Below, piece after piece: positions 4,019 through 61,798 of a DNA stretch of 64,000 nucleotides. Positions within the stretch are counted from its first letter, which is position 1. Each line of letters opens with the position of its first letter. This DNA comes from Rhodoferax sp. (lineage in GTDB: Bacteria > Pseudomonadota > Gammaproteobacteria > Burkholderiales > Burkholderiaceae_C): positions 124,001-188,000 of the forward strand of contig JARWZT010000011.1 in the NCBI GenBank assembly GCA_029866205.1, in the 5' to 3' direction. The notes beneath the pieces are model-generated. The model ran no database searches, was not told the origin of the DNA, and worked only from the letters and a program-made list of their open reading frames with translations. Position numbers and translations under genes: made by a program.

Positions 4019-4047
4019 TGCGCCCGCCGGCTCGCCGGCCCGGAGGC

Positions 4048-47270: not shown

Positions 47271-47290
47271 TTGACAGTACACTGGTGTAT
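47271..47290 (+). promoter_or_regulatory. Promoter -35 box and TetR-type operator of operon A
   Basis: A consensus -35 box TTGACA (47271-47276) is followed at once by a perfect palindrome TACAC-TG-GTGTA (47278-47289), so a bound repressor would cover the spacer. The -10 is poor. The 13-mer TACACTGGTGTAT differs at one base from the site at 53381-53393. The first gene of the operon starts 67 bases downstream. Confidence 0.6.
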
Positions 47291-47356
47291 CGATGAGCGA
47301 ACCGATGCCTGCTGCGCTAAGCGCGTGCTGGCTCTTAAATACGTGAGGGATTTGCG

Positions 47357-48187
47357 ATGAGTGAATTGGTGGTGCGAAAACTCCTGGTGGACTTGACTAC
47401 GCCTTTTGCAGCGCGATGGAACGGCGGTGATGCCTTTCGGTCGGCATTTTTTAACGCCTTGTCCATGAGCTTCCCGGTGGGTGAGCAGTTTTTTATGGAT
47501 TCGGTGCGTGCGGGCTTCAAAACCTTGCCCGAAGAGAAGCGTACGCAATTCGCCGCGGAGGTGCAGGGCTTTGTCGGTCAGGAAGCCACGCACCGGCGCG
47601 TGCATGCGTTGTTCAACGGCCATCTGGAAAAAATGGGGTTCGCCAACACCATTGCCGAGCGGGCAACCGCACGCATCAAGAAGCAAGCCCACCTCGACCC
47701 CCGCATGCATGTGGCCGGTACTGCCGCTACCGAGCACTTCACAGCGCTTTTTGCCGATTGGATGTTGCGTCATCCGGAGGCTCTTGCGGGTGCCGAGGAG
47801 CGCCTGCAAACCCTGTGGCTGTGGCACAGCGCTGAGGAGTCCGAGCACCGCAGCACCGCTTTTGACATTTACCAAGTCATGGGTGGAAGCCATCTTTGGC
47901 GTGTGCGGGTGTTTCGCTATGTGAGCTTTATCTTCCTGTGGGACTTGCTGCGCCAAACCGTTCGCAATCTTTGGCACGATGGCGCGCTGTTCAAGGTGAG
48001 TACTTGGCGCAGTGCGGCTCAGTTGCTGTTTGCCAAAGACGGCATGCTGCGCGGCAATCTGGACCTGTGGCGCGACTACCTGCGCGAAGACTTTCATCCG
48101 AACCAGCACGACGCCAGCCGGTCCCAAGCGTGGTTGCGTGACAACACGCGGCATTTCACTCCGGTTTCAGGCCCCGCGACGGCCTGA
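47357..48187 (+). CDS. PF10118 family predicted metal-dependent hydrolase (ferritin-like)
   Basis: First gene of operon A. Protein of 276 residues, mostly helical. Likely metal-binding ExxH motifs are visible in VGQEATHRRVHALFNGH and in LWHSAEESEHRSTAFDIYQ, with an early GEQFFMDSVR. The family is uncharacterised; members are often near monooxygenases and lipid genes, as here. A GAGGGA ribosome-binding site precedes ATG. It has no signal peptide and no long hydrophobic segment apart from FRYVSFIFLWDLL. The next gene starts 18 bases downstream. Confidence 0.8.
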   Translation: MSELVVRKLLVDLTTPFAARWNGGDAFRSAFFNALSMSFPVGEQFFMDSVRAGFKTLPEEKRTQFAAEVQGFVGQEATHRRVHALFNGHLEKMGFANTIAERATARIKKQAHLDPRMHVAGTAATEHFTALFADWMLRHPEALAGAEERLQTLWLWHSAEESEHRSTAFDIYQVMGGSHLWRVRVFRYVSFIFLWDLLRQTVRNLWHDGALFKVSTWRSAAQLLFAKDGMLRGNLDLWRDYLREDFHPNQHDASRSQAWLRDNTRHFTPVSGPATA

Positions 48188-48205
48188 CCTGGGGAGGCGG
48201 TGCCG

Positions 48206-48820
48206 ATGGCCTATCACGCAACGCTGGTCGCCGCGGCCATCGCGCTTTTTGCGCTCTTCGTCTGGTGGTACGGTGGCAACGGCAGGCCCATGAGTGCCGC
48301 TGAGAAAGCGCGAATTCTGGAGGCCTTGCGCCAGCGCCTGCAGGGCACACCGGGAGAGCCGTTGATCGATGAAGCCGCCCAGCTGATGGCCAGCGACGAC
48401 GGCAAAGAATTCATCATGCACAACTGTGTGCGCTACCGCGCCAAGGCGCTGTATCCGCCGGGCCACGACTATGGCGATGACCCGCGCGCTGCCGACAAGC
48501 GCTACGGCAAAGCCATTGTTCCCCACCTGCTGCGCCGCGCCTGCGTGCCGGTGTTCATCGCCCGACGCAGTGGGCGTTTTGTGGACTGCGAAGGCGTGCC
48601 CGATTGGCACTATGTGGCCATGGTTCGTTACCGCAGTCAGCGCGATTTTTTCAATTTTGCGCTGGCGATTGGCGACACCGGAGAAGATGTCCACAAGTGG
48701 GCGGCGATTGGGCAAACGCTTATTTTCCCGGTCCAACCGATCGTCAGTCTGATTTCTGTGCGCCTGTGGGTAGCCGTGATGCTGGCCTTGGTGACGGCCG
48801 CCTTGTGGGCGCTTGCATGA
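48206..48820 (+). CDS. Uncharacterised protein with N- and C-terminal membrane helices
   Basis: I do not recognise a family. 204 residues from ATG 48206, which follows GGGGAGG by 8 bases; GTG 48200 is also possible. An N-terminal helix (TLVAAAIALFALFVWWYGG, about 5-23) and a C-terminal helix (LWVAVMLALVTAALWALA) bracket a soluble part with several charged or aromatic patches, such as LMASDDGKEFIMHN, YGDDPRAADKRYGKAIV and FNFALAIGDTGEDVHKWAAI. It overlaps the next gene by ATGA. By context it belongs to the sulfatase/monooxygenase regulon. Confidence 0.7.
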   Translation: MAYHATLVAAAIALFALFVWWYGGNGRPMSAAEKARILEALRQRLQGTPGEPLIDEAAQLMASDDGKEFIMHNCVRYRAKALYPPGHDYGDDPRAADKRYGKAIVPHLLRRACVPVFIARRSGRFVDCEGVPDWHYVAMVRYRSQRDFFNFALAIGDTGEDVHKWAAIGQTLIFPVQPIVSLISVRLWVAVMLALVTAALWALA

Positions 48821-49854
48821 TTCAGTTGCCTGTTGCCTTCAAGGGCGCACCTGGCTCGCCTTACACGCGCAAGATGGTGGCGCTGATGCGCTACCGCCAT
48901 ATTGCCTACCGCTATCTGTTGGGTGTGGCGGCGGACAAGGCGAACCTGCCCAAGCCGGCTGTTGAACTGCTGCCGACGTTTTATTTGCCCGATCCGCAGG
49001 GCACGCTGATTGCCGTGACCGATTCCACACCGCTGATTCGCCGCCTGGAGCATGAAGTCGCCGGGCGCAGTGCGCTGCCCACCGACCCGGTGCTGAACTT
49101 CCTCGATGCGCTGCTGGAAGATTTTGCCGACGAATGGGTCACCAAGGCCATGTTTCATTACCGCTGGAGCTACGCGCAGGGTATTGAAAAGGCGAGTGAC
49201 ATTCTTCCGCCGCACTTTCTGGGCGTGAGTGCGGACGAGGCGGTGCTTGATGCCGCCCGGGCGCAGTTTTCAAAGCGCCAGATTGCGCGTCTGGAGGTGG
49301 TGGGCTCCAACGCGCAGACCTCTGCGCTGATCGAGGCGAGCTACGTTCGGCTGGTGGATTTGTTGGACCGCCATTTGCGGGCACAGCCATTTTTGATGGG
49401 ACACCGCCCCGGGGCCAGCGACTTTGCGCTCTACGGTCAACTGTCGCAACTGGCGCATTTCGACCCGACGTCCATGGACCTGACACTCAAACGCTCCCGG
49501 CGGGTTTTTGCCTGGGTCGGTCTGATGGAAGATCTCTCGGGCCTGGAGCCACAGGCCAGCGATTGGGCCGTGGCCGACGCGCTAGCGCCGTCCCTGGTGG
49601 CTTTGTTGCAAGAGCTGGCGCAGGGCTACGTGCCGGTGCTGCTGATGAACGCCCGGGTGCTGGCCCGGGGTGAAAAACGGGTGAAAGTCGCGTTGCCAGG
49701 CGGACTTTGGACCCAGTCGGTGGTGCCCTACCAGGCCAAGTGCCTGCGCTGGCTGCGTGCACAGTTTGCGGCGATGGACGCCCGAGACCAGTCACGAGCC
49801 CGGCAAGTACTGCACACTGCGGGTCTTGCCGACCTGATTGATGCCGACCTTTAG
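48817..49854 (+). CDS. Glutathione S-transferase-fold protein
   Basis: Protein of 345 residues, longer than a normal GST of about 210-230. The N-terminal thioredoxin-like part has GAPGSPYTRKMVALMRY (a Ser/Tyr active-site region), LLPTFYLPDP and the family's SxPL-type DSTPLIRRLE. The C-terminal part is all-helical with FLMGHRPGASDFALYGQLSQ. About 100 extra residues at the C-terminus are unassigned. It may conjugate or bind a pathway intermediate. It overlaps the preceding gene by 4 bases and precedes the sulfatase by 50 bases. Confidence 0.78.
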   Translation: MIQLPVAFKGAPGSPYTRKMVALMRYRHIAYRYLLGVAADKANLPKPAVELLPTFYLPDPQGTLIAVTDSTPLIRRLEHEVAGRSALPTDPVLNFLDALLEDFADEWVTKAMFHYRWSYAQGIEKASDILPPHFLGVSADEAVLDAARAQFSKRQIARLEVVGSNAQTSALIEASYVRLVDLLDRHLRAQPFLMGHRPGASDFALYGQLSQLAHFDPTSMDLTLKRSRRVFAWVGLMEDLSGLEPQASDWAVADALAPSLVALLQELAQGYVPVLLMNARVLARGEKRVKVALPGGLWTQSVVPYQAKCLRWLRAQFAAMDARDQSRARQVLHTAGLADLIDADL

Positions 49855-49904
49855 TGGCCTGCCGCCCCCTTTGACCTTGTGATTTGCAGCACTGGAGACT
49901 GAAT

Positions 49905-51569
49905 TTGAAAACCCAAACCAAGCTCGGAATCGGCGCTGCAGCCCTGATTGCCCTGGGCGCCTTGGCGTATGCCAACCGCATCCACGTGCTTCAGTATTCG
50001 TTGGGTTGGTATACCGATATCCGTCACCCGCGGGCCGGGTACCAAGAGACACCCTGGATGCCCGGTCCCCAAGAGCCGGCAGCACCCGTGGCCCAGCGCC
50101 CGCCCAACATCATCGTCATCATGGCCGACGACCTGGGCATCAATGATGTTTCCATGCATGGCGGAGGCCATACGGCCGAGGGCGTGCCGACCCCGCATAT
50201 TGATTCGATTGCCCGAGAGGGTGTGCGTTTTGACCAAGGCTATGCGGGCAGCGCGGTTTGCACGGTGTCGCGCGCGGCGCTTTTGACCGGACGCTACCCG
50301 TGGCGCTTTGGCGTCGAATTCACGCCCACACCGGGCGCTATGGCGCGCGTCGCTGGCGAGCTGTACTCCGACCCCAACCGGGCCCACCCGGTGATCATCG
50401 ACAAGGTCGCCGCCAAAGATGCCAAAGACTTCAGTGATCTGGGTATGCCGCCCTCTGAGATCACCATGGCCGAAGGCCTGAAGGAACGCGGCTACCACAC
50501 CATGCACATCGGCAAGTGGCATTTGGGCAGCACCCCAGAGATGCGACCTGGCAACCAAGGTTTTGACGAAAGTGTTTTCATGGAAAGCGGCTTGTATCTG
50601 CCGCAAAAGGACCCTCAGGTGGTCAACTCCAAACAGGACTTCGACCCGATCGACAAATTCCTCTGGCCCAATATGCGTTTCGGCGTGAGTTACAACGGCG
50701 GGAAGTGGTTTGAGCCGAACAAATACCTCACTGACTATTTCACAGACCAGGCCGTCACCGCAATCCAGCGCAACAAAAATCGGCCCTTCTTTTTGTTTCT
50801 GGCGCATTGGGGCGTGCACACGCCCCTGCAAGCGAGCAAAGAAGACTACGACGCGCTGTCGCATATTCCCGATCACCGGCGCCGGGTGTATGCCGCCATG
50901 GTGCGCTCGGTGGACCGCAGCGTAGGGCGTGTGTTGCAAACCTTGAAAGATGAAGGGCTCGACCAGAACACGCTGGTGATTTTTACCAGCGACAACGGGG
51001 CGCCCGGCTACATCGGAATCCCGGATGTCAATCAACCCTACCGCGGCTGGAAGCTCACGTTCTTTGAGGGCGGTCTGCGCGTGCCCTATGTTGCCAAATG
51101 GCCTGGGCATATCGCGCCAGGCACCCAGTATCCGAAGCCCATCAGCAATATTGACATGATGCCCACGGTGCTGGCGGCAGCGGGCGGAAAAATGCCGACC
51201 GACCGTCCGGTGGATGGCGTGGATTTGTTGCCCTTTCTAAGCGCCAAACCGAAGACGCAGGCCGATCGCCCCCTGTTTTGGCGCGATGGTCCTTACCGCG
51301 CGATGCGTAACCAGCAATGGAAGCTGATCTCGGCCGAATTGCCCGCCAAAGATTGGTTGTTCAATCTCGCCACCGATCCCACCGAAAAAGTCAATCTGGC
51401 GGCGACGGAGCCCCAGAAGCTGGCCGAGCTCAAGGCGGAGCTGGCCGCGCACCATGCCGACATGCCTCAGGCGCGCTGGGCATCTTTCATCAAGATGGCC
51501 ATCAGTATCGACAAGACGCTGGACCAGCCCGAAGCGCCTGGAGACGAATACACCTACTGGAACAACTGA
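49905..51569 (+). CDS. Sulfatase (arylsulfatase family) with atypical CTVSR active site, membrane-anchored or secreted
   Basis: Hydrolyses a sulfate ester. I chose TTG 49905, which is 7 bases after a GGAG site and gives MKTQTKLGIGAAALIALGAL, a signal or anchor; TTG 49884 is an alternative. The length is 554 residues. Metal-site motifs are IIVIMADDLGINDV, HIGKWHLGS and FTSDNGAPGY. The modification site reads CTVSRAALLTG: the catalytic Cys and Arg are there, but the Pro of CxPxR is Val, so conversion of Cys to formylglycine might be less efficient, or this subgroup may differ. An FGE gene follows 53 bases downstream, a strong hint that it is modified. Confidence 0.88.
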   Translation: MKTQTKLGIGAAALIALGALAYANRIHVLQYSLGWYTDIRHPRAGYQETPWMPGPQEPAAPVAQRPPNIIVIMADDLGINDVSMHGGGHTAEGVPTPHIDSIAREGVRFDQGYAGSAVCTVSRAALLTGRYPWRFGVEFTPTPGAMARVAGELYSDPNRAHPVIIDKVAAKDAKDFSDLGMPPSEITMAEGLKERGYHTMHIGKWHLGSTPEMRPGNQGFDESVFMESGLYLPQKDPQVVNSKQDFDPIDKFLWPNMRFGVSYNGGKWFEPNKYLTDYFTDQAVTAIQRNKNRPFFLFLAHWGVHTPLQASKEDYDALSHIPDHRRRVYAAMVRSVDRSVGRVLQTLKDEGLDQNTLVIFTSDNGAPGYIGIPDVNQPYRGWKLTFFEGGLRVPYVAKWPGHIAPGTQYPKPISNIDMMPTVLAAAGGKMPTDRPVDGVDLLPFLSAKPKTQADRPLFWRDGPYRAMRNQQWKLISAELPAKDWLFNLATDPTEKVNLAATEPQKLAELKAELAAHHADMPQARWASFIKMAISIDKTLDQPEAPGDEYTYWNN

Positions 51570-51622
51570 ACCGGCTGTGGCGGATTGATGCTCCACCGTT
51601 TGGTGCTGTGAATATTGTGCGC

Positions 51623-52705
51623 ATGGTCGCTCTTTTGTTTTCAACCCCACGACGGCGCTGGCTGTCCATGGCGATGCTGGCATTGCTGACGCTGGCCGCT
51701 TGGCTGGTCTGGTCGGCCCAGAGAACCGAGCTGTCGCGCGCCCGTGAACGTCTGGTGTGCGCGTTGCCGCCGGTGCCTCCTGACGCGCCGCATCCGGGCA
51801 TGGTTTGGGTGCCGGGCGGTACGCTCGCTTTAGGCGACACCGTCTACCCCGAAGAAATGCCAATCCGCCCCTTGTCAGTGGCGGGGTTTTGGCTCGACCG
51901 TACCGAGGTGACCAATGACCAGTTTGCCGCCTTTGTGAACGCCACGGGCTACCGCACTGTGGCGGAGCGTGCCGTGGACCCCCGGCAGCACCCGGAACTG
52001 CCCCCCGAGATGCGTTTGCCTGGCGCGGTGGTTTTTATCAGCCCGACCCAACTGTCTGGCCAGGGCAGTGCCACCCACTGGTGGCGCTATGTGGCTGGGG
52101 CAGATTGGCGCCATCCCGGGGGACCTGCCACCTCCATTGACGGGCGCGGTGCCTTTGCGGTGGTCAACGTCACGATTGAGGACGCGCAGGCCTACGCGCG
52201 CTGGAAGGGCGCCGTAGTGCCCTCTGAAGCGCAGTGGGAATGGGCCGCGCGTGCGGCGCAAAACCCGTCAGTGCCTTCGCATGCGCAGCCGCCGCAGGCC
52301 AATACCTGGCAAGGCCTCTTTCCTGTGTCCAATTCGGCGGCCGATGGTTTTGTCGGTTTGGCTCCGGTGGGCTGTTTTGATCCCAACGCGCTAGGCCTGT
52401 TTGACATGATTGGCAATGCTTGGGAACTCACACGGGACGCCTATACGCCGAGTCACGCGGTGCTTGCCTCCGACGCGATGGCCGACCCCTCGCCCGCTAG
52501 CGTCCGACCTGCAGGAGGCGCGATCGGACAGCACGTTATCAAGGGCGGTTCGTTTTTGTGCGCACCCAACTACTGCATGCGCTATCGCGCAGGTGCTCGT
52601 CAAGCGCAAGACGACGACCTGGCCGTCAGCCATGTGGGCTTTCGAACCGCACGGATCGCGCCGGGGCCTACGGGACCTGCGACTTCACCAGGTAGCGGCC
52701 AATGA
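51623..52705 (+). CDS. Formylglycine-generating enzyme (sulfatase-modifying factor), apparently membrane-anchored
   Basis: Converts the active-site Cys of sulfatases to formylglycine with oxygen and copper. The 360 residues run from ATG 51623 (MVALLFSTPRRR); the start is uncertain since no good ribosome-binding site is seen. Residues about 13-31 are hydrophobic (WLSMAMLALLTLAAWLVW) after RRR, a signal anchor that would put the catalytic part in the periplasm. The FGE-sulfatase domain begins at MVWVPGGTLALGD and has FWLDRTEVTNDQFAAFVNAT and VVPSEAQWEWAARAA. GGSFLCAPNYCMRYRAGAR has the two catalytic cysteines spaced as in true FGEs. It is the last gene of operon A, overlapping the convergent tetR by 38 bases. 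Confidence 0.88.
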   Translation: MVALLFSTPRRRWLSMAMLALLTLAAWLVWSAQRTELSRARERLVCALPPVPPDAPHPGMVWVPGGTLALGDTVYPEEMPIRPLSVAGFWLDRTEVTNDQFAAFVNATGYRTVAERAVDPRQHPELPPEMRLPGAVVFISPTQLSGQGSATHWWRYVAGADWRHPGGPATSIDGRGAFAVVNVTIEDAQAYARWKGAVVPSEAQWEWAARAAQNPSVPSHAQPPQANTWQGLFPVSNSAADGFVGLAPVGCFDPNALGLFDMIGNAWELTRDAYTPSHAVLASDAMADPSPASVRPAGGAIGQHVIKGGSFLCAPNYCMRYRAGARQAQDDDLAVSHVGFRTARIAPGPTGPATSPGSGQ

Positions 52706-53288
52706 TGTCGGTCAAGTATTGCTTGGTCGGGTGTGCCGCTTGGGGGCGGCTCAGGGCCTGGAAGCTACCGACAATCGTCAGGTAAAACAGGGCAGCCAGA
52801 TCAATCGCCGTTTTGGTGTCGGGGGTGATCCGCGCGAACTTGCCCGCAAACAGCGCCATGCGCGCTTGGTCCACTTCCAGCAGCATGGCGGCCACTGCGG
52901 CATCACGGCGACCCAGGCCGCGCAAGGCGAGTTCAAAGCGCATATTGCTCAGATCGGCCCCGCCATGGGCCAGGGCGGCGTCCAGCAGCAGTTCCAGGTC
53001 TTTGACCGGGTCTTCGCTGCGAGGTTGCTGAAAGCTTTGGTTGCTGGCGTGTTCTGCCGCACGCCAGCGCTCCAGCAAGGCGGCAATCAGATCCGCATGG
53101 TCCTTGAAGTGCCAGTAAAAGCTGCCACGGGTCACACCCAGCGTGTCCGCCAGCACCAGTACCCGCACGCCCTCAAAGCCGTGCTCCACCGCAGCCGCAA
53201 AAGCGGCGTCTAACCAGTGGTCGCGGTTCAGGCGCGCGGCGGCGATACGCGCAGACGGGACTTGGGGTGGGGCGGAGGACGGTACCAT
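52668..53288 (-). CDS. TetR family transcriptional regulator
   Basis: Protein of 206 residues. The N-terminal HTH (LNRDHWLDAAFAAAVEHGFE, LADTLGVTRGSFYWHFKDHA; about 20-70) is typical, and the ligand-binding domain has no recognisable specificity. The gap to the divergent sulfatase gene contains the TACAC-AG-GTGTA palindrome, and a near-identical palindrome is at the start of operon A. The regulator probably represses itself and both operons until a hydrophobic ligand binds. The pairing with an EthA-type enzyme is like EthR-EthA of mycobacteria in layout, though orthology is not shown. Confidence 0.92.
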   Translation of the reverse strand: MVPSSAPPQVPSARIAAARLNRDHWLDAAFAAAVEHGFEGVRVLVLADTLGVTRGSFYWHFKDHADLIAALLERWRAAEHASNQSFQQPRSEDPVKDLELLLDAALAHGGADLSNMRFELALRGLGRRDAAVAAMLLEVDQARMALFAGKFARITPDTKTAIDLAALFYLTIVGSFQALSRPQAAHPTKQYLTDIIGRYLVKSQVP

Positions 53289-53379
53289 TTGGTTCGGGCG
53301 AGGGGACAGTGCGGGGATTGTCGCCCAAACGATAGCGACCGACCTGAGCGTGCGCTGTGCGTGCTAAATTGCGTCCAAA

Positions 53380-53393
53380 ATACACAGGTGTAT
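53380..53393. promoter_or_regulatory. TetR-type operator in the tetR / operon B gap
   Basis: ATACACAGGTGTAT is a perfect 6+2+6 palindrome except the centre. It lies 92 bases upstream of tetR and 53 bases before the sulfatase ATG. A weak -35 (TTGCGT, 53369) and -10 (TATGGA, 53391) flank it on the plus strand. Its core matches the site upstream of operon A except for one central base. Confidence 0.65.
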
Positions 53394-53445: not shown

Positions 53446-55233
53446 ATGAAGACATTCGCGAGCACGTTCGGCTGCATGCTGGCCCTGACGGGGGTGTGGT
53501 CCAGCATGGGCGTGGCACAGGCCACCACCGGAGCGTCCGGCGGGGCAACCCGCCCCAACATCGTGGTGCTGGTGGCCGACGACTGGGGGTTCTCGGACTT
53601 GGGGGCATTTGGGGGCGAAATCGCTACACCGCACCTTGACGCACTCGCCAAGCGTGGCGTGCGCTTTTCGAACTTTCATGTGGCGGCCTCCTGTTCCCCC
53701 ACCCGCTCCATGTTGCTCACCGGCGTGGACAACCACCGCAACGGTGTCGGCAATCTGCGTGAGGCCATGCCCACCGCCCACCTTGGCAAGCCAGGCTACC
53801 AAGGGTCGTTGGCCAGCAATGTGGTTACCGTTGCGTCCCTGTTGCAGGACAGCGGCTACCGAACCTACATCTCGGGCAAGTGGAACGTCGGGTCCGAGCC
53901 CCACAACCTGCCCAACCGCCGTGGTTTTGACAAATCCATCGTCCAAGGGGACACCGGCTCTGACAATTGGGAGCCCGCCAAGCAATACCTGCCGCACCTG
54001 CCGGCGGTTTACTGGTTTGAGGACGGCAAAACCGCAACCCTGCCAAAGGACTTCTATTCGTCCGAGTATTTTGTGGACCGCATGATCGGCTACATCGACG
54101 CCGATCCGCGCAAGCAGCAGCCGTTTTTTGCGTATGTGGGCTTCCAGGCCAACCACGTGCCGGTACAGGCACCCAAAGAGCTGGTGGACAAGTACAAAGG
54201 TCGCTACCACGAAGGCTGGACCGCGCTGCGGGAACGGCGGCTGGCGCGGGCCATTGAACTGGGCTTGGTGCCACCGGGCACCCGCATGACCACCATGTCC
54301 ACCACCGGTGACTGGAAGGCGCTCAAAGCGCAAGACCGCCTGCACATGGAGCGTCAAATGGAGGTCTACGCCGCGATGGCTGAGTCGATGGACGCACACG
54401 TCGGGCGCTTGGTGGAACACCTCAAAAAGACCGGCCAGTACGACAACACCGTGTTTTTGTTTATGTCGGACAACGGCCCCGAGGGTTCGGACTACCACGA
54501 GGCGCAGCCTTGGTTGTATTTCAATTACACGCAAGACACCGCAACTTTGGGTGCCAAAGGCAGCTACGGCATTCCCGGTCCCGGCTGGGCGAGCGCCTCG
54601 GCTTCGCCCTTTTACACCTATAAGTTTTGGTCGGGTGAAGGCGGTATCCGCGCGCCCATGCTGATTTCTGGGCCCTCGGTGCGCCAGGGCAGCCACATTG
54701 AGGGAGCTTTGACCCACGTGACCGACATCACGCCCACACTGCTGGAGCTGGCGCAGGTCAAGGCACCCGGCGCCAATTACCAAGGCGTGGCGGTCGAGCC
54801 CCTCACCGGAAAGAGCCTGCTGCCTTTGTTGCAGGGCAGCGCCAGCGCGGTGCGCACCGCCGACCAGCCCTTGGGCTATGAGTTGTCCGGGAACGCCGCG
54901 CTCTTCAAGGGCACGCTGAAACTGGTGCGCAACATGCCGCCGCTGGGCGACGGGCTCTGGCACCTTTACGACCTCAGCCAGGACCCTGGTGAAACCTTGG
55001 ATATCAGTGCCCGTTTGCCAGAGGAATTTTTGGCCATGCAGGCCGACTACGTGGCCTACGAAAAGGCCAATCAGGTGCTGGAAATGCCCTCCGGCTACAG
55101 CCCCCAAAGGCAAGTTTTTATCAACAGCATCTGGCGTTATTGGGTGCCCGTATTCGGCAAACAGGCGCTTGGCGTGTTGCTGGCCTTGGCCGGATTGCTG
55201 GTTTGGTGGCGCCTGCGTCGGCGTCGCGCATGA
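53446..55233 (+). CDS. Sulfatase (arylsulfatase family), exported and C-terminally membrane-anchored
   Basis: First gene of operon B, 595 residues. The Sec signal peptide ends at about AQA (residues 1-26). Active-site features are complete: VVLVADDWGFSDLG metal Asp pair, CSPTRSMLLTGVD with the canonical CxPxR, the Lys in YISGKWNVGS and MSDNGPEGSD. The C-terminus has a membrane helix (ALGVLLALAGLLVWW) and a basic tail RLRRRRA, so the enzyme should sit in the periplasm attached to the inner membrane. Its stop overlaps the next start by ATGA. The substrate is unknown; the anchor suggests a lipid-like or membrane-near substrate. Confidence 0.92.
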   Translation: MKTFASTFGCMLALTGVWSSMGVAQATTGASGGATRPNIVVLVADDWGFSDLGAFGGEIATPHLDALAKRGVRFSNFHVAASCSPTRSMLLTGVDNHRNGVGNLREAMPTAHLGKPGYQGSLASNVVTVASLLQDSGYRTYISGKWNVGSEPHNLPNRRGFDKSIVQGDTGSDNWEPAKQYLPHLPAVYWFEDGKTATLPKDFYSSEYFVDRMIGYIDADPRKQQPFFAYVGFQANHVPVQAPKELVDKYKGRYHEGWTALRERRLARAIELGLVPPGTRMTTMSTTGDWKALKAQDRLHMERQMEVYAAMAESMDAHVGRLVEHLKKTGQYDNTVFLFMSDNGPEGSDYHEAQPWLYFNYTQDTATLGAKGSYGIPGPGWASASASPFYTYKFWSGEGGIRAPMLISGPSVRQGSHIEGALTHVTDITPTLLELAQVKAPGANYQGVAVEPLTGKSLLPLLQGSASAVRTADQPLGYELSGNAALFKGTLKLVRNMPPLGDGLWHLYDLSQDPGETLDISARLPEEFLAMQADYVAYEKANQVLEMPSGYSPQRQVFINSIWRYWVPVFGKQALGVLLALAGLLVWWRLRRRRA

Positions 55234-56477
55234 GCAGCGGCTACTTTTCGAGCCCCTGGCCCTGCGAAGACGGCAGTCCGGCGCGTTTGCAGGCAGCGCG
55301 TCCCGACGCCGCTTTGGCGCTTCAGCCTGGTGAACGCCTGCAATGTGTGACCCGCAACACCTTGTTGTCGACCATGACGGTGTTGGGACAGCCGGGCGAG
55401 GTGTACCTGCTCACCCATTCGGCGCTGAGGGCGCACCTGGGTATGGCCACCACCGCGTGCGTAGAGCGCATTGACCCGAGAACCCTGCAGCCGCTCCAGC
55501 GCTCAAAACGCCTGCCCGGCGGTCCGATGTGGCCGGGTGGCCTGGCGATTCACCGCAATGGCGACATTTACGTGGTGTATGGGCGCTACGCGCACCGCTT
55601 GGGTCGGGATTGTGGCCTCAAGACCACGTTCCAGTTGCCCCTTGACCAAGCCTACAACTCCTTTGTCATTCTGGATAACGGCCATATCGTCACCAAAAAC
55701 CTGTCGGACCAGCAACCCGCCGTGCTGACCGTGCTAGACGCAGAAACCCTGCGCCCCGCCTGCGCCGATGTACCCTGTCCTGAGGCCTCCATTGCACGCC
55801 TGAGCGCGGTGGGGAATACGGTCTATGTGGTGGGAGTTCGCAGCATCTTTCGGTACCACTGGAGCGATGCGACGCACACGCTGGAACGCGACCTTGGGTG
55901 GACTTGGGACTACGTGGGCGCCAGCGCCCAAAGCTATGGCTGGGACCCGGTGATTGACGGCCAGAACGCCTGGTTCATGGACAACGGACTGCACCGCTAC
56001 CGCATCAACATGCTGGGCGCGGGGGTGCGCCAGACGCCTAACCGCCTGTTGCGCGTGTCGCTGGCAGACGCCCAAGACCATGCCAGCGTGGAGGTCAGCG
56101 GCCTGCGCGGCGGCAGCATCACCAACCCGCCGCTGTTCGATTTGCAGCGGCGCATTGTGGTGGGCTTTGATTCGGCCAACAAAATATTGCGGGCCTGGCG
56201 CGTGGGCGAGGACCACAGCCTGGTGCCACTATGGCTGAAACAGGACTTTGGCGTGGCCAGTCACTTGCTGCTCTACCCGCAGAGCGGCGAGCTGTTGGTC
56301 AATGACTACCGGCGCCTGGGGGAAGAAGTGGTGTTGCTGGACATCGAGACAGGCACCGAACGCGCCCGGGTCCGCAGCGGCGGGCTTACCCAGGGCGTGG
56401 TGTTTCCCAGCGTGGGCTGGGAGCGCGATCTGTACTGGTGTTCGATGGGGCGCTTGGCAAGGATTTTTGTCGCATGA
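55230..56477 (+). CDS. Uncharacterised beta-propeller-like protein (SMP-30/NHL-like pattern)
   Basis: I do not recognise a named family. The 415 residues have no signal peptide and are made of recurring strand-turn blocks such as PGGLAIHRNGDIYVVYGRY, FVILDNGHIVTKNL, YGWDPVIDGQNAWFMDNG, IVVGFDSANKILRAW and HLLLYPQSGELLVNDYRR, which suggests a six- or seven-bladed propeller. The propeller could bind or hydrolyse a small ester or lactone; a lactonase acting after a Baeyer-Villiger enzyme is tempting but not supported by a clear catalytic motif. It is coupled by ATGA overlaps to the sulfatase before and the monooxygenase after. Confidence 0.72.
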   Translation: MSSGYFSSPWPCEDGSPARLQAARPDAALALQPGERLQCVTRNTLLSTMTVLGQPGEVYLLTHSALRAHLGMATTACVERIDPRTLQPLQRSKRLPGGPMWPGGLAIHRNGDIYVVYGRYAHRLGRDCGLKTTFQLPLDQAYNSFVILDNGHIVTKNLSDQQPAVLTVLDAETLRPACADVPCPEASIARLSAVGNTVYVVGVRSIFRYHWSDATHTLERDLGWTWDYVGASAQSYGWDPVIDGQNAWFMDNGLHRYRINMLGAGVRQTPNRLLRVSLADAQDHASVEVSGLRGGSITNPPLFDLQRRIVVGFDSANKILRAWRVGEDHSLVPLWLKQDFGVASHLLLYPQSGELLVNDYRRLGEEVVLLDIETGTERARVRSGGLTQGVVFPSVGWERDLYWCSMGRLARIFVA

Positions 56478-57949
56478 GCGCAGACCCGGCTGAGATTCTG
56501 GACTTCGACACCCTGATTGTGGGGGCGGGCTTGTCAGGCATTGGCAGCGCGGTGCACCTGCGCCAGCGTTGTCCTGAACAAAGCTTTGCCATTCTGGAAG
56601 GGCGCGACCGTTTGGGGGGCACCTGGGACCTTTTTCGCTACCCGGGTGTACGTTCGGACTCGGACATGCACACCCTGGGCTATGCCTTCAAGCCTTGGAC
56701 CCGTGGTCAGGCAATTGCAGACGGCCCGGCCATCCTTGAATATATTCAGGACACGGCACGCGAATACGGCCTCTTGCCGCACATCCGGCTGGGTCACCGG
56801 GTCACTGCGGCGGCATGGTCGAGCCAGGACGCGCGTTGGCGACTGACGGTGGAGCGGGGCGCAGACCAGGTGCCCCTTCAAATGCACTGCCGCTTTTTGT
56901 GGGTGTGCAGTGGCTATTACAACTACGCCCAGGGCTACACCCCGACTTTTCCGGGCCAAGAGCAATTTGCCGGGCGCATGGTGCATCCGCAAGACTGGCC
57001 TGCCGATTTGAATTACCGCAACCAGCGCGTGGTGGTGATTGGCAGCGGCGCCACCGCCATGACGCTGGTGCCCGCCATGGCCAAAGACGCGGCCCAGGTG
57101 ACCATGCTGCAGCGCTCGCCAAGCTATGTGGTGGCGCGCCCGCGTGCCGATGCACTGGCCAATGCGTTGCGCCGACTGCTGCCCGAACGCCTGGCCTATG
57201 CGCTGACGCGCTGGAAAAACGTGCTGCTGGGCCTTTTCTTCTTTTCCCTGGCCAAGCGTCACCCCGAACAAGCAAAGGCCCGCATCATTGCGGCGGCCAA
57301 AGCGGTATTGCCGCCTACTTTTGACACCCAAACCCACTTCAGTCCGCGCTACAAACCCTGGGACCAACGCGTTTGCCTGGTTCCCAACGGCGACTTGTTT
57401 GCTTCCATCCGCAGTGGCAAGGCCACCGTGGTGACCGACACCGTGGCCCGATTTGAACCCGAGGGCATCCGCCTGGGCTCGGGCACCTTGCTCAAAGCCG
57501 ATCTGGTGGTCACCGCGACCGGTCTGGACTTGTTGGGCTTTGGCGGCATGGCCCTCAGCGTCGATGGCATACCGTTACAGGTGGGCAAAACTATGAGCTA
57601 CAAGGGCATGATGCTGGCCGGCGTGCCCAACCTGGCCTATGTGGTTGGTTACACCAATGCATCGTGGACGCTCAAAAGCGACCTGACCGGCGCCTTTGTT
57701 TGCCGCGTGCTGCGCCATATGCAGCGCAGCGGCGCCCGGGTTTGTGTGCCCGACGCACCCGGCGCAGGCGTGCAAACGCAGCCGTGGGTGGATTTCAGCT
57801 CGGGCTATATCCAGCGCTCGCTTGACCAGTTTCCGGTGCAGGGCAGCCGGGTGCCCTGGCGCCTGAACCAAAACTATCTGCGCGATCTGCTGGACCTGCG
57901 TTTTCGTGGTTTGAACGACGGCGTGCTGCAGTTCAAAAGCCGGCTGTGA
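56474..57949 (+). CDS. FAD-dependent Baeyer-Villiger monooxygenase, EthA type
   Basis: Inserts oxygen next to a ketone using NADPH and oxygen, making an ester or lactone; EthA relatives also oxidise sulfur. The 491 residues start MSADPAEILDFDTLIVGAG. The FAD loop VGAGLSGIGSA, GGTWDLFRYPGVRSDSDM, the Baeyer-Villiger fingerprint FAGRMVHPQDWPADLNY (FxGxxxHxxxWP) and the NADPH loop VVIGSGATAMTLVPAM are present. Later NPWDQR-like KPWDQRVCLVPNGDLF, YKGMMLAGVPN and VGYTNASWTLKSDL match EthA closely. It is the last gene of operon B. The neighbouring TetR and PF10118 genes fit a pathway for hydrophobic ketones. Confidence 0.92.
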   Translation: MSADPAEILDFDTLIVGAGLSGIGSAVHLRQRCPEQSFAILEGRDRLGGTWDLFRYPGVRSDSDMHTLGYAFKPWTRGQAIADGPAILEYIQDTAREYGLLPHIRLGHRVTAAAWSSQDARWRLTVERGADQVPLQMHCRFLWVCSGYYNYAQGYTPTFPGQEQFAGRMVHPQDWPADLNYRNQRVVVIGSGATAMTLVPAMAKDAAQVTMLQRSPSYVVARPRADALANALRRLLPERLAYALTRWKNVLLGLFFFSLAKRHPEQAKARIIAAAKAVLPPTFDTQTHFSPRYKPWDQRVCLVPNGDLFASIRSGKATVVTDTVARFEPEGIRLGSGTLLKADLVVTATGLDLLGFGGMALSVDGIPLQVGKTMSYKGMMLAGVPNLAYVVGYTNASWTLKSDLTGAFVCRVLRHMQRSGARVCVPDAPGAGVQTQPWVDFSSGYIQRSLDQFPVQGSRVPWRLNQNYLRDLLDLRFRGLNDGVLQFKSRL

Positions 57950-58172
57950 CAGCCGATGGCCAGCGTCTGTCGCCCGCGCTACATGGCCGGTCGCCCGGTC
58001 GTCAGTGTTGCCAATGCTCCGCAGCTAAAATAAAAAAGCACGGTCGTTCTATTCTGGCTTTCGTCCCCTGTAAGCTGACAGATACCACTGGGCGCATAGA
58101 ATCCTCAGTTGACGTGCACGTAAGGTCCCTGCGGCGCTGAAGTGCCTTTTTTTATCCTCTGGAGTGGTAGAC
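57950..58172. promoter_or_regulatory. Upstream region of etfBA
   Basis: 223 bases between the monooxygenase and etfB, with no gene. It holds the imperfect palindrome described at 58037-58050 and probably the etfBA promoter. GGAG at 58161 precedes the etfB ATG by 8 bases. Confidence 0.4.
58037..58050. promoter_or_regulatory. Imperfect palindrome, candidate TetR-family fatty-acid regulator site
   Basis: AGCACGGTCGTTCT, where the arms AGxACG and CGTxCT mirror each other across a GT centre, follows an A-rich stretch and lies about 120 bases before etfB. From memory, operators of this kind (ACG-N2-CGT cores) are used by TetR-family regulators of fatty acid breakdown in betaproteobacteria, which would suit etfBA. 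This is inference. Confidence 0.35.
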
Positions 58173-58922
58173 ATGAAAGTTTTGGTACCGGTCAAACGCG
58201 TGGTTGATTACAACGTCAAGGTGCGCGTCAAGTCTGACGGCAGCGGCGTTGACATTGCGAACGTCAAAATGAGCATGAATCCCTTTGACGAGATCGCCAT
58301 TGAGGAGGCGGTGCGTCTGCGCGAAAAAGGTGCCGTGACTGAGGTAATCGCTGTGTCCTGCGGTGTGACCCAGTGTTCCGAGACCCTGCGTACGGCCATG
58401 GCCATTGGCGCAGACCGTGCCATCCTGATTGAAACCAGCGAAGAGCTGCAGCCCTTGGCCGTGGCCAAGCTGCTCAAAGCCCTGATGGACAAAGAGCAAC
58501 CGGGTCTGGTGATCTTGGGCAAACAAGCCATTGATGACGACTGCAACCAGACCGGCCAAATGCTCGCCGCCCTGAGCGACCGCCCCCAAGCCACCTTTGC
58601 CAGCAAGGTCGAAGTGGCCGACGGCAAGGTGCAGGTCACCCGCGAAGTGGACGGCGGCTCCGAGACCTTGAGCCTGACACTGCCGGCCATCATCACCACC
58701 GATTTGCGCCTGAACGAGCCCCGCTATGTCACCTTGCCCAACATCATGAAGGCCAAGAAAAAGCAGCTCGACACCTTTACCCCGGCTGATTTGGGCGTGG
58801 ACATTAGCCCGCGGATCAAGACCCTCAAAGTGGTCGAACCGGCTGCCCGCAGCGCCGGTATCAAGGTCGCCGACGTGGCCGCCTTGGTTGAAAAACTGCG
58901 CAACGAAGCCAAAGTCATCTAA
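58173..58922 (+). CDS. etfB: Electron transfer flavoprotein subunit beta
   Basis: With EtfA it takes electrons from acyl-CoA dehydrogenases to the ETF-quinone oxidoreductase. The start at ATG 58173 ([20 protein letters not shown]) follows GGAG by 8 bases; GTG 58164 is less likely. This gives 249 residues. Landmarks are [49 protein letters not shown] and the signature region [20 protein letters not shown]. etfA follows 48 bases later, and an acyl-CoA dehydrogenase lies just beyond. Confidence 0.96.
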
Positions 58923-58970
58923 GTACCGCAAGCCCCGGCCGTACCACCTATTGATTCAAAGGACATATTC

Positions 58971-59903
<933 letters not shown>

Positions 59904-59910
59904 TCGCAGG

Positions 59911-59943
59911 AAAAAAAGGCACCTCGCGCGGTGCCTTTTTTTT
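59911..59943 (+). terminator. Rho-independent terminator of etfBA
   Basis: GGCACC and GGTGCC form the stem around a TCGCGC loop, and the stem extends with A-run/T-run pairs, followed by eight T. It would also work weakly on the other strand because of the A-run. Confidence 0.92.
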
Positions 59944-60007
59944 GTCTGGACTTTGCGTTTTTTCGTTTTTCGTGCCCCGATCTTCCGGTTTCAATTGAAA
60001 GCACACC

Positions 60008-61798
60008 ATGAGCTACATCGCCCCCGTCAAAGACATGCTGTTCAATATGGAGCATCTGGCCCGTATTGACCAGATTGCCCAACTGCCCGGTTTTGAGGAT
60101 GCCGACCTCGACACGGCGCAAGCGGTTTTGGAAGAGGCAGCCAAGTTCACAGAGGGCGTGCTCGCACCCTTGAACTGGGAGGGCGATATTCATCCCACGA
60201 GCTGGAAAGATGGCGTGGTCACGGCGACCCCGGGTTTCAAAGAAGCCTTCAAGCTCTTTGCCGAAGGCGGTTGGCAAGGCCTGCAGCACCCGACAGCTTT
60301 TGGCGGCCAGGGCCTGCCCAAGACCATCGGCTCGGTGTGTGGCGAAATGCAAAACTCTGCCAATATGAGTTTTGCGCTGTGCCCCTTGCTCAGCGATGGT
60401 GCGATTGAGGCGCTGTTGACCGCAGGGTCGGACGAGCTCAAGGCCACTTACCTGGAAAAGCTGGTGAGCGGCGAGTGGACCGGCACCATGAACCTGACCG
60501 AGCCCCAAGCCGGCAGTGACCTGGCCATGGTACGGACCCGCGCCGAGCCGCAACCGGACGGCACCTACAAGGTGTTTGGCACCAAGATCTACATCACCTG
60601 GGGTGAACACGACATGGCCGACAACATCGTCCATCTGGTGCTGGCACGGGTGCAGGGAGCGCCTGAAGGCGTCAAAGGCATCAGCCTGTTTGTGGTGCCC
60701 AAATTCATGGTCAATGGCGATGGCTCACTGGGCGCGCGCAACGACGTGCATTGCGTCAGCATCGAACACAAGATGGGGATCAAGGCCAGCGCCACGGCTG
60801 TTTTGCAGTACGGCGACCACGGTGGCGCTGTGGGCTATTTGGTGGGCCAGGAAAACCGCGGCCTCGAATACATGTTCATCATGATGAACGCCGCGCGCTA
60901 CGGCGTCGGGGTGCAAGGCATTGCGATTGCCGAGCGCGCCTACCAAAAGGCTGCCAGTTTTGCGCGTGACCGCGTTCAAAGCCGTCCGGTCGATGGTTCC
61001 ATGAATGCCAGCGCGCCCATCATTCACCACCCTGACGTGCGCCGCATGCTCATGACCATGCGCGCCTACGTGCAGGGCTGCCGCGCCCTGGCCAGTGTGG
61101 CGGCATCGGCGTTTGACGTGGCACACCACCACCCGGACGCCGAGGCGCGCAAAGAGCACCAGACCTTTTATGAATTCATGGTGCCGCTGATCAAGGGCTT
61201 TAGCACCGAGATGAGCCTGGAGGTCACCTCCCTGGCGGTGCAAGTACACGGCGGTATGGGCTTTATCGAGGAAACCGGCGTGGCCCAGTACTACCGCGAC
61301 GCCAAAATCCTGACGATTTACGAAGGCACGACCGCCATTCAAGCCAACGACTTGGTGGGGCGCAAAACCTCGCGCGATGGTGGCCAAGCGGCCAAGGCCA
61401 TCGCGGCGCAAATTTCTGTCACGGTGGCTGACCTGCGGGCCAGCGGCACCGCCCACGCGCTGGCGATGGCCCAGCGTCTGGACACTGCGCGCGCGGCCCT
61501 GGTGGACGTGATTGACTTTGTCGCGGGCAATACCAAAGCCAGCCCCAATGCGGTGTTCTCGGGCAGCGTGCCCTACTTGATGCTGGCGGGCAATGTGATG
61601 GCCGGCTGGCAAATGGGACGCTCCCTGCTGGCCGCCCAACACGCCATGGCCGAGGGCAAAGAGGCAGACTTCATGCAGGCCAAAGTGCTGACGGCGCGTT
61701 TTTACGCCGACCATATCCTGACCAAGGCCCAGGGCCTGCGCGACAGCATTGTGGAAGGCGCCGACAGCGTCACCGCGCTCGCGCTGGACGCGTTTTAA
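60008..61798 (+). CDS. Acyl-CoA dehydrogenase with C-terminal extension (DmdC / FadE-long type)
   Basis: Oxidises acyl-CoA to enoyl-CoA with FAD and gives electrons to ETF. The 596 residues are longer than short-chain enzymes, as in the 3-methylmercaptopropionyl-CoA dehydrogenase (DmdC) branch. Visible features are MNLTEPQAGSDLAMVRTRA, the FAD contact YITWGEHDM, IEHKMGIKASATAV, VQVHGGMGFIEETGVAQYYR and the catalytic Glu in ILTIYEGTTAIQANDLVGRK; the last 120 residues are the C-terminal domain. DMSP-specific function cannot be claimed. It is 23 bases before the nitronate monooxygenase gene. Confidence 0.92.
   Translation: MSYIAPVKDMLFNMEHLARIDQIAQLPGFEDADLDTAQAVLEEAAKFTEGVLAPLNWEGDIHPTSWKDGVVTATPGFKEAFKLFAEGGWQGLQHPTAFGGQGLPKTIGSVCGEMQNSANMSFALCPLLSDGAIEALLTAGSDELKATYLEKLVSGEWTGTMNLTEPQAGSDLAMVRTRAEPQPDGTYKVFGTKIYITWGEHDMADNIVHLVLARVQGAPEGVKGISLFVVPKFMVNGDGSLGARNDVHCVSIEHKMGIKASATAVLQYGDHGGAVGYLVGQENRGLEYMFIMMNAARYGVGVQGIAIAERAYQKAASFARDRVQSRPVDGSMNASAPIIHHPDVRRMLMTMRAYVQGCRALASVAASAFDVAHHHPDAEARKEHQTFYEFMVPLIKGFSTEMSLEVTSLAVQVHGGMGFIEETGVAQYYRDAKILTIYEGTTAIQANDLVGRKTSRDGGQAAKAIAAQISVTVADLRASGTAHALAMAQRLDTARAALVDVIDFVAGNTKASPNAVFSGSVPYLMLAGNVMAGWQMGRSLLAAQHAMAEGKEADFMQAKVLTARFYADHILTKAQGLRDSIVEGADSVTALALDAF

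What the first reader, a model, noticed from the sequence alone, without database searches (positions are those of the whole stretch)
47271..53393. Two near-identical palindromes mark a TetR regulon of two operons
TACACTGGTGTAT at 47278-47290 and TACACAGGTGTAT at 53381-53393 differ by one base, and both have perfect 5-base arms. One follows a TTGACA box in front of the five-gene operon A. The other is in the gap between a minus-strand tetR and operon B. I noticed no other TACACnnGTGTA in the window, though I could not search exhaustively. This joins genes 47357-52705 and 53446-57949 into one inferred regulon controlled by the TetR at 52668-53288.
Basis: partly seen in the sequence, partly recalled or inferred. 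Interest (0 to 1): 0.78.

Follow-up and report, generated by a model that had tools for sequence, protein, structure and literature searches.

The report
TetR operators uniting a scattered sulfatase regulon
Two near-identical DNA palindromes very probably mark promoters controlled by one repressor, and the same palindrome also marks two distant genes, a sulfatase-like hydrolase and a haloalkane dehalogenase, which suggests a bacterial programme for using a sulfated and perhaps chlorinated lipid.

Summary
TACACNNGTGTA occurs twice in the window and three times in the 3.07-Mb genome; 114 family genomes without a close TetR ortholog predict 0.16. It is conserved: of 8 other TetR orthologs (54-64% identity) found in 299 family genomes, 7 have a perfect site beside tetR and the eighth one mismatch. 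All 10 perfect sites in those 8 genomes lie at the cluster. In an unbiased count this palindrome, in two registers, is the most frequent gapped palindrome upstream of 80 TetR relatives.

The regulon is larger than proposed. The third site precedes a remote MBL-fold sulfatase-like gene, which in 7 of 8 relatives sits in operon B. A one-mismatch fourth site with 10-bp perfect arms precedes a haloalkane dehalogenase, which in 5 of 8 relatives is next to that gene. Both genes usually carry the operator when alone (22 of 23; 13 of 22 within one mismatch) and lack it inside the operon. In relatives the operator probably covers the -10 box.

I infer an inducible catabolic regulon for a sulfated, possibly halogenated lipid. 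Binding, inducer and substrate are untested.

The parts
47278..47289 (.). Operator A, TACACTGGTGTA, in front of operon A (extended form CAGTACACTGGTGTATCG)
   Evidence: upstream of PF10118 in named relatives 16 of 42 perfect and 19 of 42 with at most one mismatch
47271..47276 (+). TTGACA next to operator A; doubtful as -35, its ACA overlaps bases that are often kept outside the operator (ACAG)
   Evidence: in 26 distinct sites of relatives a -35-like box peaks 17 bp upstream of the operator
47357..48187 (+). Operon A gene 1: PF10118 protein ('predicted metal-dependent hydrolase'; model resembles ferritin-like di-metal oxidases, weakly)
   Evidence: Pfam 243.7 bits, cut-off 33.2; AlphaFold2 pLDDT 93.1; best Foldseek hit an R2-like ligand-binding oxidase, E 0.046
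48200..48820 (+). Operon A gene 2: 206-aa protein of unknown family, found in many relatives
   Evidence: No Pfam or NCBIfam match; tblastn in relatives
48817..49854 (+). Operon A gene 3: glutathione S-transferase-like (start read)
   Evidence: Pfam GST_N_3 and GST_C_2
49884..51569 (+). Operon A gene 4: S1-type sulfatase with unusual CTVSR formylglycine motif
   Evidence: Pfam Sulfatase; nearest solved: kappa-carrageenan S1 sulfatase, E 1.6e-81; motif
51623..52705 (+). Operon A gene 5: formylglycine-generating enzyme-like activator; start uncertain (read)
   Evidence: Pfam FGE-sulfatase 207.1 bits, cut-off 23.3; Cys316 and Cys321 (numbered from base 51614) kept in 46 of 46 homologs
52668..53288 (-). 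TetR-family regulator, the inferred repressor
   Evidence: Pfam TetR_N; orthologs; model pLDDT 84.5; TetR folds as best hits
53381..53392 (.). Operator B, TACACAGGTGTA (6-bp arms with 53380 and 53393), in the gap between tetR and operon B
   Evidence: perfect in 7 of 8 family orthologs, at most one mismatch in 52 of 80 named relatives
53446..55233 (+). Operon B gene 1: arylsulfatase, CSPTR motif
   Evidence: Nearest solved: arylsulfatase 1hdh, E 2.4e-125; CxPxR in 65 of 65 homologs
55230..56477 (+). Operon B gene 2: 416-aa protein of unknown family (start read); among 299 family genomes found in 6, each with the close TetR
   Evidence: No Pfam or NCBIfam match
56474..57949 (+). Operon B gene 3: flavin-containing (Baeyer-Villiger-like) monooxygenase
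   Evidence: Pfam FMO-like

Best explanation
The two palindromes are operators of the TetR-family protein at 52668-53288, which represses a scattered catabolic regulon. In this genome the regulon has at least four units: operon A (PF10118, unknown 206-aa protein, GST, S1 sulfatase, sulfatase activator); operon B, divergent from tetR (arylsulfatase, unknown 416-aa protein, flavin monooxygenase); an MBL-fold sulfatase-like hydrolase on contig C4; and a haloalkane dehalogenase on contig C21. A TetR dimer on RTACACNNGTGTAY covers the promoter (in relatives, probably the -10 box of unit A) and blocks transcription. A lipid-like inducer, probably an intermediate of the pathway, releases it. The enzymes then remove sulfate, and where present halogen, from a lipophilic compound whose carbon skeleton goes to beta-oxidation. 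Shown by computation: the sites, their rarity, their conservation and the gene links. Inferred: binding, repression, inducer and substrate.
For: Rarity: 3 perfect sites in 3.07 Mb against 0.16 expected from 114 family genomes. Conservation beside tetR: 7 of 8 perfect, 1 with one mismatch; 20 of 80 perfect and 52 of 80 with at most one mismatch, against 1.1% and 3.0% of 1,600 random windows. In an unbiased count of gapped palindromes with 5-bp arms, ATACA-N4-TGTAT (24 of 80, 1.4 expected) and TACAC-N2-GTGTA (20 of 80, 1.3 expected) are the two most frequent. All 10 perfect sites of the 8 ortholog genomes are at the cluster; in 26 closer genomes 39 of 48 perfect sites fall at units A, B, MBL or dehalogenase. 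Remote MBL gene: site 34-54 bp before the start, perfect in 12 and at most one mismatch in 22 of 23 with upstream sequence, while it lies inside operon B in 7 of 8 family relatives. Stand-alone dehalogenase: at most one mismatch in 13 of 22, own copy included; none in the 5 beside the MBL gene in operon B. In 10 loci where a ligase-like gene leads operon A, the site lies before it. Promoter: mean match to TTGACA is 3.0 of 6 exactly 17 bp upstream of TACACT, 0.65-2.12 at the other spacings from 8 to 31. The 416-aa protein occurs in 6 of 299 family genomes, all 6 among the 9 with the close TetR.
Against: No binding or expression data. Many loci are close relatives, and the 80 named loci contain the 8 family genomes again, so counts are not independent. 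28 of 80 TetR upstream regions have no site within one mismatch; some of these (L095, L110, L143, L144, L149, L150, L155) keep a perfect site only in front of operon A. 23 of 42 PF10118 upstream regions lack one within one mismatch, partly because the operon starts elsewhere. 9 of 22 stand-alone dehalogenases have 2-3 mismatches. The dehalogenase has no close ortholog in 3 of the 8 family relatives (G173, G050, G186), and the 416-aa protein is missing from 3 of the 9 TetR genomes. 9 of 48 perfect sites in the closer genomes are outside the four units. The window's operator A does not have the -35 spacing of the relatives. Another TetR with the same specificity could compete: distant TetRs (34-41% identity) have similar sites beside them.
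Confidence: 0.87

Rival explanations
1. The palindromes are operators, but only local ones for this TetR: it controls itself and operon B, and the copies at A, MBL and dehalogenase belong to another TetR-type regulator with similar specificity.
For: Distant TetRs (34-41%) in other genomes carry the same kind of palindrome beside them: 5 of 11 perfect and 4 more with one mismatch, so the motif is not private to this ortholog group.
Against: Only one TetR match at E up to 1e-20 exists in the own genome. In relatives the MBL and dehalogenase genes are physically part of the TetR cluster, and in the 8 ortholog genomes no perfect site lies outside the cluster.
Confidence: 0.08
2. The palindromes are not operators but chance or structural repeats (terminators, repeat elements).
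For: Short 12-bp palindromes occur by chance; the family background is 0.05 per Mb, and same-genus G287, without the TetR, has two unrelated copies.
Against: Expected 0.16 in the genome against 3; the central NN varies while the arms stay; the place in front of starts is kept although the gene order changes; copies inside the operon lack it.
Confidence: 0.02
3. (Substrate, a separate question.) The substrate is a steroid or sterol sulfate rather than a halogenated lipid: sulfatases free the hydroxyl, the Baeyer-Villiger-like monooxygenase and beta-oxidation open the skeleton, and the TetR works like KstR.
For: First Foldseek hits of the TetR model by E-value are KstR (4.7e-5), with FadR and FasR in the list; flavin monooxygenase in operon B; neighbouring ETF and acyl-CoA dehydrogenase genes; a below-cut-off match of the ligase to a steroid-24-oyl-CoA synthetase model (251 of 750 bits).
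Against: KstR sequence score is far below its cut-off (20.5 of 280 bits); multidrug regulators (TtgR, AcrR, SmeT) score nearly as well in fold and best in sequence; no protein scanned passed a curated cut-off for a steroid enzyme; a haloalkane dehalogenase has no evident role.
Confidence: 0.25
4. (Substrate, a separate question.) The substrate is a plain alkyl or aryl sulfate (surfactant-like), with the dehalogenase serving another purpose.
For: Arylsulfatase closest to 1hdh; acyl-CoA-ligase-like gene in relatives; 3 of 8 family relatives have the cluster without a close dehalogenase ortholog.
Against: It leaves unexplained why the dehalogenase is in the cluster in 5 of 8 relatives and often keeps an operator when it stands alone.
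Confidence: 0.25

Closest known systems
TetR-family repressors of lipid catabolism (KstR of Mycobacterium tuberculosis; FadR of Bacillus; FasR)
   Same: TetR fold; KstR is the first Foldseek hit by E-value, FadR and FasR are in the list; palindromic operators at several promoters and a catabolic regulon (recalled)
   Different: Sequence matches to solved TetRs are weak, and the best are SmeT, AcrR and TtgR, multidrug regulators; KstR model far below cut-off; operator RTACACNNGTGTAY differs from the KstR and FadR motifs (recalled); here the targets are sulfatases and a dehalogenase
PA3973 of Pseudomonas aeruginosa (PMC9736018, passages seen)
   Same: TetR regulator near acyl-CoA metabolism genes with palindromic sites in its own promoter
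   Different: Motif SAAGRNMTGAACG, more than 300 ChIP sites; a different operator
Arylsulfatase of 1hdh type with formylglycine-generating enzyme
   Same: Sulf2 residues 35-544 of 595 align, E 2.4e-125; CxPxR motif in 65 of 65; FGE-like activator encoded nearby
   Different: Inferred to be under TetR control together with two other sulfatase-like enzymes; the S1 sulfatase of operon A has CTVSR
Haloalkane dehalogenases (6f9o, 5esr, 4mj3; NCBIfam PRK00870)
   Same: The own-genome protein matches 6f9o with E 4.7e-106; a relative's protein scores 430.2 bits, cut-off 265; the Asp of GQDWG/CQDWG and the His of GHFLQED are in 44 of 44 covered homologs, some counted twice (their catalytic roles are recalled)
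   Different: Linked by operator or position to sulfatases

Membership tests
TetR-family repressor regulon | Regulator has a TetR N-terminal DNA-binding domain and an all-helical TetR fold | tested here: met
   Pfam TetR_N 40.1 bits, cut-off 24; model with 9 helices, pLDDT 84.5; TetR folds as best hits
TetR-family repressor regulon | Palindromic operator in the regulator's own intergenic region, conserved in orthologs | tested here: met
   7 of 8 perfect, 52 of 80 with at most one mismatch and 28 of 80 without
TetR-family repressor regulon | Same operator at further promoters of functionally linked genes | tested here: met
   Units A, MBL and dehalogenase
TetR-family repressor regulon | Operator overlaps the promoter so that binding blocks RNA polymerase | tested here: inconclusive
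   In 26 distinct sites of relatives a -35-like box peaks 17 bp upstream of the left half; not so in the window
TetR-family repressor regulon | Regulator binds the operator and is released by a ligand | not testable with these tools
   Needs purified protein
KstR (steroid catabolism repressor) | Meets the curated KstR model | tested here: not met
   20.5 bits, cut-off 280
Haloalkane dehalogenase (PRK00870) | Passes the curated score of the family | tested here: met
   L210 protein 430.2 bits, cut-off 265; the own-genome ortholog is 87% identical to it but was not itself scanned
Haloalkane dehalogenase (PRK00870) | Dehalogenates a haloalkane | not testable with these tools
   Needs an assay
MBL-fold arylsulfatase | Metal-binding HxHxDH and best solved relative an arylsulfatase | tested here: met
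   HFHSDH in 52 of 52 covered homologs, some counted twice; best hit 8gyg 'Arysulfatase', E 3.2e-27
MBL-fold arylsulfatase | Sulfatase activity | not testable with these tools
   Needs an assay; NCBIfam's best matches are RNase Z models below cut-off (172 of 363 bits), so nuclease or phosphodiesterase activity is not excluded

The most novel reading that the evidence does not exclude
This is an operator-defined regulon for breaking down chlorosulfolipids, the polychlorinated sulfated lipids of freshwater golden algae: three sulfatase-like enzymes and a sulfatase activator remove the sulfates, a haloalkane dehalogenase (with a neighbouring alpha/beta hydrolase) removes chlorine, and an acyl-CoA ligase and beta-oxidation take the chain, all under one TetR. 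It would be a bacterial pathway for a lipid class whose degradation appeared in none of the listings of my two chlorosulfolipid searches.
Probability: 0.2. Interest if true: 0.85.

Novelty: new member of a known kind. Interest (0 to 1): 0.6.

Why it matters
A 12-bp operator links genes that no longer lie together, and so reveals a catabolic programme that gene order alone hides in this genome: sulfatases, a sulfatase activator, a dehalogenase and several unknown proteins. It gives uncharacterised proteins (PF10118, the 206-aa and 416-aa proteins) a testable context. It also shows the same genes as one cluster in some relatives and as scattered, operator-tagged units in others, an example of a regulon held together while its cluster breaks up (or of units later gathered). 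If the substrate is a chlorosulfolipid, it would open the fate of these algal lipids in lakes to direct test.

Tried and rejected
TTGACA as the -35 of operon A: real, but in relatives the bases often kept there are ACAG, part of the wider operator, and a -35-like box peaks 17 bp upstream of TACACT; I do not use it.

A fifth unit, an aldehyde dehydrogenase next to an aldolase II gene: it has a perfect site in 3 genomes, but the gene is found in only 3 of 27 searched. The stretch fetched from the own genome holds the aldolase and a degenerate AAACACAGGTGTTT. Not counted as a unit.

Other perfect sites of the 26 closer genomes: 9 of 48 are outside the four units, 3 of them at the aldehyde dehydrogenase and 6 elsewhere (L209, L212, L213, L217, L218, L221; at least L217, L218 and L221 apparently inside coding sequence).

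PA3973 as the prototype: its motif differs.

Motif in print: TACACNNGTGTA gave 0 papers; five spellings gave 3 papers, by listing a yeast, a human-variant and a juniper study. TetR + palindrome + arylsulfatase and the like gave 9; dehalogenase + sulfatase + TetR + freshwater gave 182 with 20 listed; TetR + sulfatase + dehalogenase + Comamonadaceae + regulon gave 6; no matching system in these listings. Chlorosulfolipid gave 16 papers and the mixed search 83 with 15 listed; no listed title or abstract start was on bacterial degradation. Of these I saw passages of PMC13413282 only. Absence from these open-licence papers is weak evidence.

PF10118 literature: 17 papers, 15 listed, listing only, nothing useful.


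Full report
OBSERVATION. The whole genome, 3,069,559 bases in 24 contigs, has three. The background comes from 120 genomes of the same family, all of which one search had searched for the TetR: leaving out the own genome and the five with a close ortholog, 114 genomes of about 471 Mb hold 24 sites, 0.051 per Mb, so 0.16 would be expected here. Unrelated copies do occur: the same-genus genomes G125, G217 and G287, without the TetR, have 1, 0 and 2.

GENES. Operon A: a PF10118 protein, a 206-aa protein without family, a GST-like protein, an S1 sulfatase and a formylglycine-generating enzyme-like protein. Operon B: an arylsulfatase, a 416-aa protein without family and a flavin monooxygenase. Between them lies a minus-strand TetR. 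The arylsulfatase matches 1hdh (E 2.4e-125); the operon A sulfatase matches carrageenan S1 sulfatases (E 1.6e-81). The formylglycine motif is CxPxR in 65 of 65 arylsulfatase homologs. In the operon A sulfatase it is C-T/A-V/P/I-S-R in the 40 of 42 homologs that cover it, with V in 30; the activator's Cys316 and Cys321 (numbered from base 51614) are in 46 of 46.

CONSERVATION AT TETR. Of 299 family genomes, 20 have a TetR match at E up to 1e-20; nine, the own one included, are at 54% identity or more. I fetched the stretches of all eight others. A perfect site stands beside tetR in 7 of 8 and a one-mismatch site in the eighth; a perfect second site stands before the PF10118 gene in 3 of 8, and a one-mismatch site in one more. 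In three of the rest, one-mismatch sites lie before an open reading frame upstream of PF10118 that begins like the acyl-CoA-ligase-like protein of other relatives (by eye). These eight genomes hold 10 perfect sites in all, every one at the cluster. Of 11 distant TetRs (34-41%), 5 have a perfect site and 4 a one-mismatch site nearby; 2 have neither.

NAMED RELATIVES. A scan of the genome collection kept the best 80 of 561 TetR loci: mostly betaproteobacterial MAGs, many titled Comamonadaceae, with Roseateles toxinivorans, Pelomonas and Undibacterium isolates. In the 350 bases upstream of TetR residue 17 the best site has 0, 1, 2, 3, 4 mismatches in 20, 32, 9, 16, 3 of 80; random 350-base windows of the same loci have 0 or 1 mismatch in 3.0% of 1,600. 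Upstream of PF10118 the figures are 16 perfect and 3 with one mismatch of 42. To avoid bias I counted every palindrome with 5-base arms and gaps 0-8: ATACA-N4-TGTAT (24 of 80, 1.4 expected) and TACAC-N2-GTGTA (20 of 80, 1.3 expected) lead at tetR, and TACAC-N2-GTGTA (16 of 42, 0.8 expected) leads at PF10118. Against the reading: 28 of 80 lack a site within one mismatch at tetR, and some of these keep a perfect one only at operon A (L095, L110, L143, L144, L149, L150, L155).

THIRD UNIT. The third perfect site of the own genome lies 36 bases before an MBL-fold hydrolase on another contig. Its best solved relative is an arylsulfatase, 8gyg, E 3.2e-27, and the metal motif HFHSDH is in 52 of 52 covered homologs, some counted twice; NCBIfam's best models, RNase Z types, stay below cut-off. 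In 7 of the 8 family relatives this gene lies in operon B; G050 has no match. I then searched the genomes of 26 of the 80 named loci, picked from the clade whose loci mostly carry the flavin monooxygenase: 23 of 26 have the gene. Of 27 gene pieces, 4 lack upstream sequence; of the other 23, 12 have a perfect site, 10 one mismatch and 1 two, 34-54 bases before the start. Of the 48 perfect sites of these 26 genomes, 39 are at unit A, B, MBL or dehalogenase, 3 at an aldehyde dehydrogenase and 6 elsewhere. In 10 loci the unit-A site precedes a ligase-like gene that leads the operon.

FOURTH UNIT. Three of those 39 sites precede a haloalkane dehalogenase; the one scanned scores 430.2 bits, curated cut-off 265. 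The own genome has an ortholog, 87% identical, at C21:116360-117256 minus, and the only one-mismatch ATACACNNGTGTAT site outside the cluster is 100 bases before the match, inside a 24-base inverted repeat AGTCCATACA-N4-TGTATGGACT. The own protein matches solved haloalkane dehalogenases (6f9o, E 4.7e-106). Among 22 orthologs with upstream sequence that lie on other contigs than the MBL gene, own one included, 3 are perfect, 10 have one mismatch, 7 two, 2 three; in 5 of 8 family relatives the gene is next to the MBL gene in operon B, and there no site precedes it. So the same gene often has the operator when alone and lacks it inside the operon. A wider pattern, CRTACANNNNTGTAYG, has exactly two perfect matches in the own genome: the MBL and the dehalogenase sites. 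Limits: G173, G050 and G186 have TetR clusters but no close dehalogenase ortholog.

MECHANISM. In 26 distinct unit-A sites of relatives the match to TTGACA peaks at 3.0 of 6 exactly 17 bases upstream of TACACT, 0.65 to 2.12 at the other spacings from 8 to 31. The operator's left half is therefore probably the -10 box, and a bound TetR would exclude RNA polymerase. The window's operator A lacks this -35; its TTGACA touches the operator instead, so its promoter is uncertain. The TetR model (pLDDT 84.5) has KstR as first fold hit by E-value, with FadR and FasR in the list, regulators that respond to acyl-CoA thioesters (recalled); but multidrug regulators TtgR, AcrR and SmeT score nearly as well and are the best by sequence. 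A lipid-like inducer is a guess, no more.

SUBSTRATE. Unit A of a number of relatives begins with an AMP-binding enzyme closest to long-chain acyl-CoA ligases, below that model's cut-off (803 of 869 bits); the MBL gene follows a fadB-like gene (Pfam 3HCDH and ECH; NCBIfam below cut-off) and a thiolase-like gene (by eye); an ETF pair and an acyl-CoA dehydrogenase follow operon B. Sulfatases, their activator, a dehalogenase and fatty-acid genes together point to a sulfated, perhaps halogenated lipid. Chlorosulfolipids were first described from freshwater golden algae (passages of PMC13413282); the listings of my searches showed no paper on their bacterial degradation. That the relatives live in fresh water is my reading of some record titles and not tested. 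I give the chlorosulfolipid reading 0.2; steroid sulfates and plain alkyl or aryl sulfates remain open.

LINKAGE. The 416-aa protein occurs in 6 of 299 family genomes at E up to 1e-40, all 6 among the 9 with the close TetR; 3 of those 9 lack it.

VERDICT. The control logic is of a known kind; the combination of targets is what is new.

Noticed in passing
window 52668-52705: The sulfatase-activator gene and tetR overlap tail to tail by 38 bases.
   Followed up: no
window 47357-48187: PF10118, named a predicted metal-dependent hydrolase, gives a confident helical model whose best (weak) folds are R2-like oxidases and AurF; the kept E76-A-T-H79 and E161-x-x-H164 look like a di-metal site, so it may be an oxygenase.
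   Followed up: partly
window 49884-51569: The operon A sulfatase has CTVSR where CxPxR or CxAxR is usual (recalled); V in 30 of 40 covered homologs, P in 9, I in 1.
   Followed up: partly
L007 4377-5273 (own genome, contig C21): An alpha/beta hydrolase lies just upstream of the dehalogenase; a 67% identical protein is divergent from tetR across the palindrome in L035 (same contig as L106, Hydrogenophaga sp.). It might open epoxides; no NCBIfam cut-off was reached.
   Followed up: partly
L008 about 3942-4713 (own genome, contig C21): The own genome has the aldolase II gene (92% identity) and a degenerate AAACACAGGTGTTT after it, but no match to the aldehyde dehydrogenase that follows a perfect site in three relatives.
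   Followed up: partly
L042-L052: Distant TetRs (34-41% identity), several near thiolase- and acyl-CoA dehydrogenase-like genes, carry the same kind of palindrome in 9 of 11 cases (5 perfect, 4 one mismatch), which hints at a wider TetR subfamily with one operator type.
   Followed up: partly
window 58164-61798: An electron-transfer flavoprotein pair and an acyl-CoA dehydrogenase follow operon B, without a perfect palindrome of their own.
   Followed up: no
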